Shown here: positions 58,102 through 60,844 of the stretch, one piece after another | Position numbering within the stretch: position 1 is the stretch's first letter | Layout: each line of letters starts with the position of its first letter | DNA from: Solirubrobacteraceae bacterium | Lineage (GTDB): Bacteria > Actinomycetota > Thermoleophilia > Solirubrobacterales > Solirubrobacteraceae | Direction of reading: 5' to 3' | Assembly: GCA_031177685.1 (NCBI GenBank) | Contig: JAPSGI010000001.1 | Span: 124,001 to 188,000, forward strand | DNA: 64,000 bases | Notes under the pieces: generated by a model | Told to the model about the DNA's origin: nothing | Seen by the model: the letters and a program-made list of their open reading frames with translations, nothing else | The model's database searches: none | Made by a program: the position numbers and the translations under genes

Positions 58102-59529
58102 CTACTGCTGCGGCGGGGGCGGGGGCGGCTCGCCCTCGGCGGGCGCCGGCTCGGCGCGCTCCTCGCCGGACGCCGGGGGCGGCGAGCTTCCCTGCGGCTG
58201 CGCCTTGCCGTTCTCCTCGGGCGCCGGCATCGCCGCCGGCGCGGGCTGCGCGGGCGTCGTGGTCGGCGGGGGCTGGCTGGGCAGCACGGTGGTGTCGGTG
58301 ACCGTCTCGGTCTCGGGCGCCGGCGCCGGCGCCGGCGTCGTCGCGGCGGGCTCCGCAGGGGCGGGCGCCGGAGTCGTGGCGGCGGGCGCCACCGCGAGCG
58401 CCTTGACGGCGGGCTTGGGCGCGGGCTTGCGCGCCGGAGCCACGGGCCGTGGGCGGTCGGGGGCGGGCGTGCCGCCGGTCGCGGGGACGTGGGCGAGCTC
58501 GCGCGCGACGGGCTTGACCGCCGCCGGCTCGTGCGTCACCTGGCGAACCTCGACGGCGCCCACGCCGACGATCGCCGCCGCGGCCAGTCCGGCCGCGGCC
58601 TTGGAGCCCACGGCGCCGGCTCCGGCGGACAGCAGGCCGCTCGCCGCGCCGCCGGCGGCGGCGGTGCCGGCCGCCGTCCCCACGGCCGTGCTCGCGGCAC
58701 CCGCGCCGCCCCCGGCGGTCGAGCCGCCCAGGTGGACGGCGATGAGGTGCTTGAGAGCGATGATCGGGCCGACGGGGAAGATCGCCGCCAGGGCCTTGTT
58801 GGTGTCGCGCAGCTGGCGCTTGAACGACGCGCAGCGATCGCACTGCTTGAGGTGGCGGCGCACCGGCGGGCTGAGCTTGACGAGGCCCTCGGCGACCTCG
58901 CCGAGCTCCAGGCGGACCTCGTCGCAGGAGAGCTGGCGGGCCTCGGCGGCCTCGGCCAGCGCCACGCGCGCGCGCACGAGCAACGACTTCACGCTGGGAA
59001 CCGTCGTGTCCATCGCCTCGGCGATCTGCTCGTAGGACAGCGCGTCGATCTCGCGCAGCAGCAGGGCGGTGCGCTGCGTCTCGGGTAACCCCTGCACGTC
59101 GGACAGCAGCAGGCGGAAGTCCTCGCGGCCGTGCACCTTGTCCGCCGTCGTGAGGCCGTTCTCGGAGAAGTGGACGTCCATCGAGTCCACCCCGATCGGC
59201 TGGACGCGGCGCAGGTGGTTGAGCGAGCGGTTGCGCGCGATGCGGTACAGCCACGGCCGCACGTTGAGCGGGCGCTCGTCGGCCTGCATCGCGTTGAAGG
59301 CGGCGGCGAAGACCTCCTGCAGCACGTCCTCCGCGTCCTCGCGCGAGCCCAGCATGTGGCGGCAGAACGCGAGCAGGCGCGACTGGTAGCGCCCCATGAG
59401 CGCCTCGAAGGCGTGCTCGCTGCCACGCCGCACCAGCGCTACGAGACGTTCGTCGGACTGGAGGCGGAGTAGGGGCGAGCGCCCGTGTATGCCGGCGACG
59501 CCGGCGTGGTTCAGTGCCGAAGCTTCCAC
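58102..59529 (-). CDS. ECF sigma factor fused to anti-sigma zinc finger, TM and Pro/Ala-rich domain
   Basis: A 475-residue protein. Sigma-2 (about 27-110, FEALMGRYQSRLLAFCRHML, RPWLYRIARNRSLNHLRR) and sigma-4 (about 142-195, GLPETQRTALLLREIDALSYEQIAEAM) are followed by a ZAS-type zinc motif Cys202, His226-x3-Cys230-x2-Cys233. A hydrophobic helix (about 308-327) leads into a Pro/Ala/Thr-rich exported tail (330-475). Sigma and anti-sigma parts normally lie on two proteins. A TTA codon is Leu148 (59086-59088). GTG start at 59529. The sigma part is probably released by proteolysis or conformational change (inference). Confidence 0.85.
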   Translation of the reverse strand: MEASALNHAGVAGIHGRSPLLRLQSDERLVALVRRGSEHAFEALMGRYQSRLLAFCRHMLGSREDAEDVLQEVFAAAFNAMQADERPLNVRPWLYRIARNRSLNHLRRVQPIGVDSMDVHFSENGLTTADKVHGREDFRLLLSDVQGLPETQRTALLLREIDALSYEQIAEAMDTTVPSVKSLLVRARVALAEAAEARQLSCDEVRLELGEVAEGLVKLSPPVRRHLKQCDRCASFKRQLRDTNKALAAIFPVGPIIALKHLIAVHLGGSTAGGGAGAASTAVGTAAGTAAAGGAASGLLSAGAGAVGSKAAAGLAAAAIVGVGAVEVRQVTHEPAAVKPVARELAHVPATGGTPAPDRPRPVAPARKPAPKPAVKALAVAPAATTPAPAPAEPAATTPAPAPAPETETVTDTTVLPSQPPPTTTPAQPAPAAMPAPEENGKAQPQGSSPPPASGEERAEPAPAEGEPPPPPPQQ

Positions 59530-59572
59530 GCGTGTTCGGAGTCCCTTCCCTCGAAGGACACCGTAGCAACGT

Positions 59573-60844
59573 TCAAGTTGCGCCCTTTACAGTGTCGGCA
59601 TCGCGCCCGGGTGGCGTAATGGCAGACGCACGCCGGCTTAAACCCGGCTGTCCTGCGGGACGTGTGGGTTCGAATCCCACCCCGGGCATTCCGGCCCTCC
59701 GCGCCAGCGCGCGGGCGGCCAGCGCCGCCGCTCCCGCGGCGAAGCCGATCGCCAGGTTGCCGGAGGCCAGCGTCACGAGGCCGACGCCCGCGGCCAGCAC
59801 CCGGTCGCCCGCAAGCTCCAGCGTGCCGGCCAGCAGCGCGTGCTGGAGCGCCACGTAGAGCAGCATCCCGGCCAGCACGCCCGGGACGAGCAGGGCGAGC
59901 AGGGCGGGCAGCGACGCGCCGAAGGCGAGCGCGAGCCCCAGGTACAGCCCGCCCACCGACAGCGTCGCGCCCGCGGTCCGGGCGCCGAGCTTGACGTGCG
60001 CGGTGACGCCGCCGGCGCCGTGGCACACCGGCATCGCGCCGGTCGCGCCCGTCAGGAGGTTGGCCAGGCCGATGGAGCGCGCGAGCCGCGCGGGGGTCAC
60101 CCGCCCCGCGCGCGCGCCGAAGTAGGTGCGCTCCGCGTCCGCGGTCGCCACCACGGAGTTGCCGAACGTCAACGGGAGCTGAGCCAGCACGAGCGACGTG
60201 AGCGCGGTGGCGAAGGCGCCGCCGTCGGGGACGGCCAGCGCCGGCGCCTGCGGCCCCAGCGCCACGTCCGGCGCCCCGCCCACCGCCAGCCCGACCACCA
60301 CGCCCGCCCCCAGCAGGGCCAGCGTTCCCGGGACCGCGCGCCGCCGCCCGCCAACCGACAGCGCCGCGAGCGCGGCGCACGAGACCGCCGCCAGGCCCAT
60401 TCCGACGGCCGGGTCGATCGCCGGCAGCCCCGCCCAGTTCCCCTTCTCCGCCAGCTCCACCGCCGCCTTGGCCAGCAGCAGCGCCACGCTGGCCTGGATG
60501 CCCCGCACGAGCACGAGCGGGAAGCGCGCCGCCAGCCACGTGGCCAGCCCGCCCGCGCCGAGCGCGAGCATGAGCGCCGCCATGGTGAGGGCACCGGCCG
60601 CGATCACGTCGGCCTCCAGCCGCAGCGCGATGGCCGCCGCCGCGAACGCCTTCAGGGGCTGGACCGGGACGGGGACGCGGAAGTAGAGCGCCGTGGCGAC
60701 GTAGACGATCCCGGCGGCGGCGAAGACGGCGGTCGCGTCGAGCCCGTTGACCGCGACGAGCGCCACCGCCAGCGGCACGAACAGCCCCACGTCCCCCAGC
60801 CCGCCCGCGAGCTCGTGGCGGTCGAAGCGAATCCAGCGCGGCAC
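59573..60844 (-). CDS. MOT1-family molybdate/sulfate-type permease
   Basis: A 423-residue permease with ~11 hydrophobic helices. The family motif GGLGDVGLFVPLAVAL lies near the N-terminus and a repeated HGAGGVTAHVKLGARTAG region follows later; this is the MOT1 molybdate-transporter pattern. GTG 60844 is chosen. Its last ~39 codons read antisense through tRNA-Leu and give GVGFEPTRP-type residues, a known artefact of frames crossing tRNA genes. The true gene may therefore end earlier, or overlap a tRNA. Confidence 0.7.
   Translation of the reverse strand: MPRWIRFDRHELAGGLGDVGLFVPLAVALVAVNGLDATAVFAAAGIVYVATALYFRVPVPVQPLKAFAAAAIALRLEADVIAAGALTMAALMLALGAGGLATWLAARFPLVLVRGIQASVALLLAKAAVELAEKGNWAGLPAIDPAVGMGLAAVSCAALAALSVGGRRRAVPGTLALLGAGVVVGLAVGGAPDVALGPQAPALAVPDGGAFATALTSLVLAQLPLTFGNSVVATADAERTYFGARAGRVTPARLARSIGLANLLTGATGAMPVCHGAGGVTAHVKLGARTAGATLSVGGLYLGLALAFGASLPALLALLVPGVLAGMLLYVALQHALLAGTLELAGDRVLAAGVGLVTLASGNLAIGFAAGAAALAARALARRAGMPGVGFEPTRPAGQPGLSRRASAITPPGRDADTVKGAT
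59588..59593 (+). promoter_or_regulatory. -10 box TACAGT for tRNA-Leu
   Basis: TACAGT lies 11 nt before the tRNA. The gap to the divergent sigma gene also holds GCAAC-N6-GTTGC (59566-59581). Confidence 0.4.
59605..59688 (+). tRNA. tRNA-Leu (anticodon TAA)
   Basis: An 84-nt class II tRNA. Acceptor GCCCGGG (59605-59611) pairs with CCCGGGC (59681-59687); discriminator A suits Leu. Anticodon arm GCCGG-CTTAAAC-CCGGC puts TAA in the loop, reading UUA. A variable arm GTCC-TGC-GGAC is present. The T-arm is GTGGG-TTCGAAT-CCCAC. No CCA is encoded. UUA is very rare in this G+C range, and the neighbouring sigma gene has one TTA codon. Confidence 0.95.

What the first reader, a model, noticed from the sequence alone, without database searches (positions are those of the whole stretch)
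58102..59529. Sigma factor and anti-sigma factor in one polypeptide
The ECF sigma-2/sigma-4 pair is followed in frame by a ZAS-type zinc motif (Cys202, His226-x3-Cys230-x2-Cys233), a membrane helix (~308-327) and a Pro/Ala-rich exported tail. Sigma and anti-sigma domains are normally encoded by separate genes. A fused, membrane-tethered sigma factor would need release by proteolysis, zinc redox change or tail sensing. The sensing domain has no recognisable fold, so the signal is unknown.
Basis: partly seen in the sequence, partly recalled or inferred. Interest (0 to 1): 0.75.

Follow-up and report, generated by a model that had tools for sequence, protein, structure and literature searches.

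The report
Membrane-tethered sigma factor with built-in inhibitor
One gene encodes a bacterial transcription switch joined to what looks like its own off-switch, a probable membrane anchor and a floppy tail; such fused proteins are already known in related bacteria, and this one is a conserved but undescribed member of that kind.

Summary
A 475-aa gene (58102-59529, minus strand) joins an ECF sigma factor to a complete ZAS anti-sigma domain, a probable membrane helix and a disordered Pro/Ala/Thr-rich tail. It is not an artefact: the fusion and zinc ligands (C202, H226, C230, C233) are conserved in all 54 orthologs found, nearly all Solirubrobacterales/Thermoleophilia. The zinc region modelled alone matches RsiW, RslA and ChrR, and its profile recovers a separate RskA-like anti-sigma in another class. 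The same genome holds at least five more fused proteins.

The architecture is not new: ECF48, ECF52 (SCO4117), ECF53 and IutY are described sigma/anti-sigma fusions; proteolytic release is shown for IutY. Differences here: no carbohydrate-binding domain, and a weakly constrained tail (pN/pS 0.46-0.99 against 0.03-0.17 for sigma), so a ligand-binding tail is unlikely. New here: a conserved ECF-type promoter motif just upstream, with no other exact copy in the genome, suggesting self-activation. Best model: a membrane-anchored latent sigma factor, inhibited in cis and released by tail trimming plus intramembrane cleavage; how the attached ZAS then lets go is open. Verdict: new member of a known kind, moderate interest.

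The parts
58102..59529 (-). Whole gene, 475 aa, GTG start: fused ECF sigma factor / ZAS / membrane helix / low-complexity tail
   Evidence: GC at codon position 3 is 0.93-0.97 along the whole frame
59206..59397 (-). Sigma region 2 (residues 45-108)
   Evidence: PF04542 E 1.3e-16; VIA-align Z 14 to E. coli sigmaE region 2
58957..59094 (-). Sigma region 4 (residues 146-191)
   Evidence: PF08281 E 3.5e-14; Z 11.9 to SigL region 4 in 3hug
58729..58926 (-). ZAS anti-sigma domain, four helices (residues 202-267); predicted zinc ligands C202, H226, C230, C233
   Evidence: invariant in 54/54; pLDDT mostly above 90 over 202-250; RsiW Z 6.1, RslA Z 4.4; hhalign 91% to a separate ZAS protein of the same genome
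58603..58722 (-). Gly/Ala-rich linker (residues 270-309)
   Evidence: low model confidence, variable length in orthologs
58546..58602 (-). Probable transmembrane helix (residues 310-328), ortholog consensus ATKAAAGLAAAAIVTAGAVEV
   Evidence: pN/pS of linker plus helix 0.10-0.39
58105..58545 (-). Pro/Ala/Thr-rich disordered tail (residues 329-475), presumed outside the membrane
   Evidence: low pLDDT; ortholog tails 80-311 aa; pN/pS 0.46-0.99
59557..59582 (-). ECF-type promoter-like motif CGCAACT-N13-GGTGTC, about 28-53 bases upstream of the start codon
   Evidence: CGCAACT in 35 of 51 ortholog upstream regions against at most 13 for any 7-mer in shuffles; fixed 14-base spacing in most; only exact copy in the genome

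Best explanation
The gene encodes a latent, membrane-tethered ECF sigma factor that carries its own ZAS-type anti-sigma domain in the same chain. In the resting state the ZAS domain, joined to sigma4 by about ten residues, clamps the sigma domains in cis (or in trans within a dimer), and the helix at 310-328 holds the protein at the membrane with the Pro/Ala/Thr-rich tail outside. An envelope signal leads to trimming of the tail and then cleavage within the membrane helix by a site-2 protease. The released cytosolic sigma-ZAS fragment is then freed from inhibition by further proteolysis or by loss of zinc or oxidation. The active sigma probably recognises CGCAACT-N13-GGTGTC in front of its own gene, giving positive feedback. 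Shown by computation: domain make-up, conservation, homology of the ZAS to separate anti-sigma factors, selection profile, the promoter-like motif, and presence of site-2 protease homologs. Inferred: zinc binding, inhibition, membrane topology, proteolysis, autoregulation and the signal.
For: Domains. Zinc ligands 54/54 and helix residues nearly invariant. ZAS fold matches RsiW, RslA and ChrR among the chains looked at, and hhalign to separate ZAS proteins of the same genome gives 91% and 63%. The A2 profile recovers a separate RskA-like anti-sigma in another class at E 1.4e-8. No separate anti-sigma gene was recognised among the recurrent neighbours (not every neighbour was annotated). pN/pS: sigma 0.03-0.17, ZAS 0.23-0.48, linker plus helix 0.10-0.39, tail 0.46-0.99. 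Two Peptidase_M50 (site-2 protease family) genes in the genome. Conserved upstream ECF-type motif. IutY: shown to be cut by Prc then RseP, with Prc needed only when the outer part exceeds 50 aa (PMC5411451). SCO4117 truncation data fit release of the sigma part (PMC5826349).
Against: The membrane helix is Ala-rich and only moderately hydrophobic, and AlphaFold gives it low confidence. The ZAS stays covalently bound to sigma after membrane release, so cleavage alone need not activate it. The relative placing of sigma2, sigma4 and ZAS in the model is not reliable (pTM 0.39). Peptidase_M50 genes are found in all 14 control genomes, so their presence is weak support. The motif may be read by another sigma factor; no further regulon sites were found above the reversed-pattern control.
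Confidence: 0.6

Rival explanations
1. The ZAS is a cytosolic redox or zinc switch: oxidation of the C202/H226/C230/C233 site (as in RsrA-type ZAS proteins) loosens the clamp and activates sigma while it stays attached. The Ala-rich segment only localises the protein.
For: Full Cys-His-Cys-Cys ligand set invariant in 54/54, and the ZAS resembles ChrR and RsiW. This would remove the problem that ZAS stays attached to sigma after cleavage. C56 in sigma2 is also conserved (49 of 53).
Against: The same zinc ligands occur in ZAS domains without redox function (background knowledge). The conserved helix and outer tail would then have no clear role.
Confidence: 0.2
2. The Ala-rich segment is not a membrane helix; the protein is a soluble sigma factor with a cis-acting ZAS and a long disordered tail that binds a cytosolic partner.
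For: Hydrophobicity is borderline (1.13 to 1.79 across orthologs), and AlphaFold does not give a confident helix there.
Against: The segment is among the most conserved outside sigma and is as hydrophobic as the membrane segment of the genome's RskA-like anti-sigma. Paralogs keep a hydrophobic segment at the same place, up to 2.05.
Confidence: 0.15
3. The ZAS is vestigial or structural and the protein is constitutively active, controlled mainly by transcription of its gene.
For: pN/pS of the ZAS (0.23-0.48) is higher than that of sigma; the gene has its own conserved ECF-type motif.
Against: All four ligands and many surrounding positions are invariant over an order-wide sample.
Confidence: 0.05

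Closest known systems
ECF52 sigma factors (SCO4117 of Streptomyces coelicolor)
   Same: Sigma2-sigma4, zinc finger (ZAS), membrane helix and Pro-rich outer extension in one chain, in Actinomycetota; release by proteolysis proposed (PMC5826349, PMC8999054).
   Different: ECF52 ends in a carbohydrate-binding module; no Pfam domain was found in the tail here. Sequence relationship to SCO4117 itself was not tested.
ECF48 and ECF53 groups
   Same: Described as actinobacterial ECFs with a C-terminal zinc finger and one or two membrane helices acting as a fused anti-sigma factor (PMC8999054).
   Different: Group models were not available, so group membership is untested; some ECF52 and ECF53 proteins carry glycosyl hydrolase or carbohydrate-binding domains (PMC10766802), not found here.
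IutY of Pseudomonas putida (ECF243)
   Same: Sigma and anti-sigma in one membrane protein, activated by proteolysis (PMC5411451).
   Different: Its anti-sigma part is the periplasmic domain of an iron cell-surface-signalling system with an outer membrane receptor; the tail here is disordered and no receptor gene was seen nearby.
Separate RskA/RsiW/RslA-type anti-sigma factors
   Same: ZAS fold and, in membrane-bound forms, one membrane helix; profile and structural matches.
   Different: Encoded by their own gene, with a longer outer domain in the RskA type.

Membership tests
ECF sigma factors | Sigma2 and sigma4 without sigma3 | tested here: met
   PF04542 and PF08281 above cut-off; TIGR02937 sigma70-ECF 76.7 bits against a cut-off of 42.9
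ZAS / class I anti-sigma domain | H-x3-C-x2-C with an upstream Cys/His ligand | tested here: met
   C202, H226, C230, C233 in 54/54
ZAS / class I anti-sigma domain | Helical anti-sigma fold | tested here: met
   Modelled segment: RsiW Z 6.1 (68 residues, rmsd 3.0), RslA Z 4.4, ChrR Z 2.7; hhalign 91% to a separate ZAS protein. Caveat: no Foldseek hit at E<=0.001
ZAS / class I anti-sigma domain | Binds zinc and inhibits its sigma factor | not testable with these tools
   needs biochemistry
Fused sigma/anti-sigma ECFs (ECF48/52/53 type) | Sigma, zinc finger and membrane helix in one chain | tested here: met
   helix probable, not proven
ECF52 | C-terminal carbohydrate-binding module after a Pro-rich region | tested here: not met
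   Pro-rich region present, but no domain in the tail by Pfam in the window protein or as a shared hit among 39 members
ECF48, ECF53 | Match to the group profile of the ECF classification | not testable with these tools
   ECF group models not available
IutY / ECF243 | Folded iron-signalling anti-sigma outer domain with a partner receptor | tested here: not met
   tail disordered, no recognisable domain

The most novel reading that the evidence does not exclude
A Solirubrobacterales family of one-protein envelope-stress systems: a membrane-anchored sigma factor whose inhibitor stays attached after cleavage, so activation must be a conformational or zinc switch in cis, with a disordered, wall-spanning tail as sensor rather than a ligand-binding domain. 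The family expanded within the genome and possibly runs a circuit that activates mainly its own gene.
Probability: 0.2. Interest if true: 0.65.

Novelty: new member of a known kind. Interest (0 to 1): 0.4.

Why it matters
Fused sigma/anti-sigma proteins are poorly studied; IutY and SCO4117 are the only experimentally examined cases that I found. This family offers a minimal version: no ligand domain, an order-wide ortholog set, at least six copies in one genome and a candidate promoter to use as a reporter. It makes a specific open question testable: how a sigma factor becomes active when its inhibitor is covalently attached by about ten residues.

Tried and rejected
Frameshift or mis-joined genes: rejected, since the fused ORF is intact in all complete orthologs and GC at codon position 3 is high throughout. 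The exception is the same-genus genome (L079), whose frame has one TGA; that genome is 72% complete in 290 contigs, so I read it as an assembly error or local loss.

Ligand-binding tail: disfavoured.

Zinc domain by sequence in PDB chains: no hit at E<=1 with profile A2; Foldseek alone gave no significant hit; only the re-alignment by VIA-align ranked RsiW, RslA and ChrR.

Regulon search with the promoter motif: one-mismatch sites (4) did not exceed the reversed-pattern control (11), and no GCAAC copy was seen in the 200 bases upstream of four paralogs.

Wider genome surveys (relatives, order, family) failed on the server; a 21-genome phylum sample gave two hits outside the window genome, one of them a separate anti-sigma gene.

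Viruses: no relative in viral contigs. Plasmids: mostly sigma-domain matches. No paper on ECF sigma factors in Thermoleophilia or Solirubrobacter was found in the held library.

Full report
The gene. The frame 58102-59529 on the minus strand codes for 475 residues from GTG. Pfam places sigma region 2 at 45-108 and region 4 at 146-191, with no sigma3, and NCBIfam's ECF superfamily model passes its cut-off. The second half carries C202, H226-x3-C230-x2-C233, a Gly/Ala-rich linker, a hydrophobic Ala-rich stretch and a Pro/Ala/Thr-rich tail.

It is real and conserved. One scan of species genomes returned 54 orthologous loci, nearly all from Solirubrobacterales or other Thermoleophilia by record title (one is titled Bifidobacterium breve and is most likely a mislabelled bin). 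In the alignment the four zinc ligands are invariant in 54 of 54, and P252, K310, A313, A317 and G324 are invariant or nearly so. The 42 complete orthologs listed start with ATG, GTG or TTG at or near the same place. No ortholog with a complete ORF splits the halves. The same-genus genome has one TGA in the frame; it is a fragmentary assembly.

The zinc region is an anti-sigma domain. Modelled alone from 48 sequences, residues 196-333 give four helices over 202-267. VIA-align ranks RsiW first (Z 6.1, 68 residues), RslA second (Z 4.4), and ChrR also appears. Z under 8 is modest for small helical domains, but three anti-sigma factors among the 12 entries listed is unlikely to be chance. Independent sequence support: hhalign to a separate ZAS protein of the same genome, 91% probability, and to an RskA-like anti-sigma of the same genome, 63%. 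The A2 profile also finds a separate RskA-like anti-sigma gene in another class at E 1.4e-8. Pfam zf-HC2 misses the window protein but passes its cut-off in a paralog.

Membrane helix and tail. Residues 310-328 score 1.63 on Kyte-Doolittle; the ortholog median is 1.52 against 1.55 for the membrane segment of the RskA-like anti-sigma. Pairwise pN/pS in six pairs is 0.03-0.17 for sigma, 0.23-0.48 for ZAS, 0.10-0.39 for linker plus helix and 0.46-0.99 for the tail. Tails run from 80 to 311 residues and are 57% Ala, Pro and Thr. The composition is kept while the sequence drifts, which fits a spacer or wall-spanning stalk better than a binding domain.

Relatives in the same genome. Among the loci fetched, at least six proteins have sigma, H-x3-C-x2-C and a C-terminal low-complexity extension in one chain: the window protein, L072, L073, L075, L076 and L083. 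One more (L074) has sigma, a weak hydrophobic stretch and a tail without the zinc motif. Only two separate ZAS genes were found by zf-HC2. In a sigma-domain tree most of the fused proteins group together with moderate support, so the family probably expanded by duplication. L083 and a fused protein of Thermomicrobium roseum (WP_012642865.1) fall elsewhere, so fusion may have happened more than once, although both placements are weak.

Promoter. The 200 bases upstream of 51 sequences (the window and orthologs) share CGCAACT in 35 cases, against at most 13 for any 7-mer in shuffles. In most it is followed at a fixed 14-base distance from GCAAC by GGTGT(C) or a variant. The spacing and the GCAACT element resemble ECF -35/-10 pairs (background knowledge). 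Related sequences inflate such counts, but the neighbouring bases have diverged. In the window the motif lies at 59557-59582, and it is the only exact copy in the genome. Positive autoregulation is the simplest reading; a wider regulon with a looser motif is not excluded.

Surroundings. tRNA-Leu(TAA) lies at 59605-59688 on the plus strand. A short conserved gene converges from the other side, and several neighbours recur in orthologous loci. No separate anti-sigma gene was recognised there, although not every neighbour was annotated. Two Peptidase_M50 genes exist in the genome, as this family does in every control genome.

What is known. ECF48, ECF52 and ECF53 are described as actinobacterial ECFs with C-terminal zinc finger and membrane helices, expected to be activated by proteolysis (PMC8999054). 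SCO4117 (ECF52) has the same order of parts plus a carbohydrate-binding module, and its truncation data support release of sigma (PMC5826349). IutY is the one case with proteolysis shown, by Prc and RseP, and Prc is dispensable when the outer part is under about 50 residues (PMC5411451). The window protein is therefore a new member of a known kind; its ECF group was not testable here.

Mechanism and its gap. The most likely cycle is cis inhibition, tail trimming, intramembrane cleavage and release. The gap is that ZAS stays attached about ten residues after sigma4, so either partial proteolysis removes it or a conformational or zinc change opens it. That is the point worth an experiment.

Noticed in passing
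L094, L097, L100, L103, L104, L106, L108 (own genome): Seven other ECF-like sigma paralogs form one clade (96/96) and share an Arg-rich C-terminal extension of about 40 residues, often ending like RRxALRP.
   Followed up: partly
L074 / L091 (own genome C2:68527-69114): A sigma paralog with a weak hydrophobic stretch and a long Arg-rich low-complexity tail but no zinc motif; perhaps a fused protein that lost its ZAS.
   Followed up: partly
L128:1480-2790: Thermomicrobium roseum plasmid gene (WP_012642865.1) is also a sigma / ZAS-like / membrane-helix fusion with a different outer part, outside Actinomycetota.
   Followed up: partly
59605-59688: tRNA-Leu (TAA) on the plus strand, divergent from the sigma gene; the promoter-like motif lies between them.
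   Followed up: no
L049: A contig titled Bifidobacterium breve carries an ortholog otherwise found in Solirubrobacterales; most likely a mislabelled metagenome bin.
   Followed up: no
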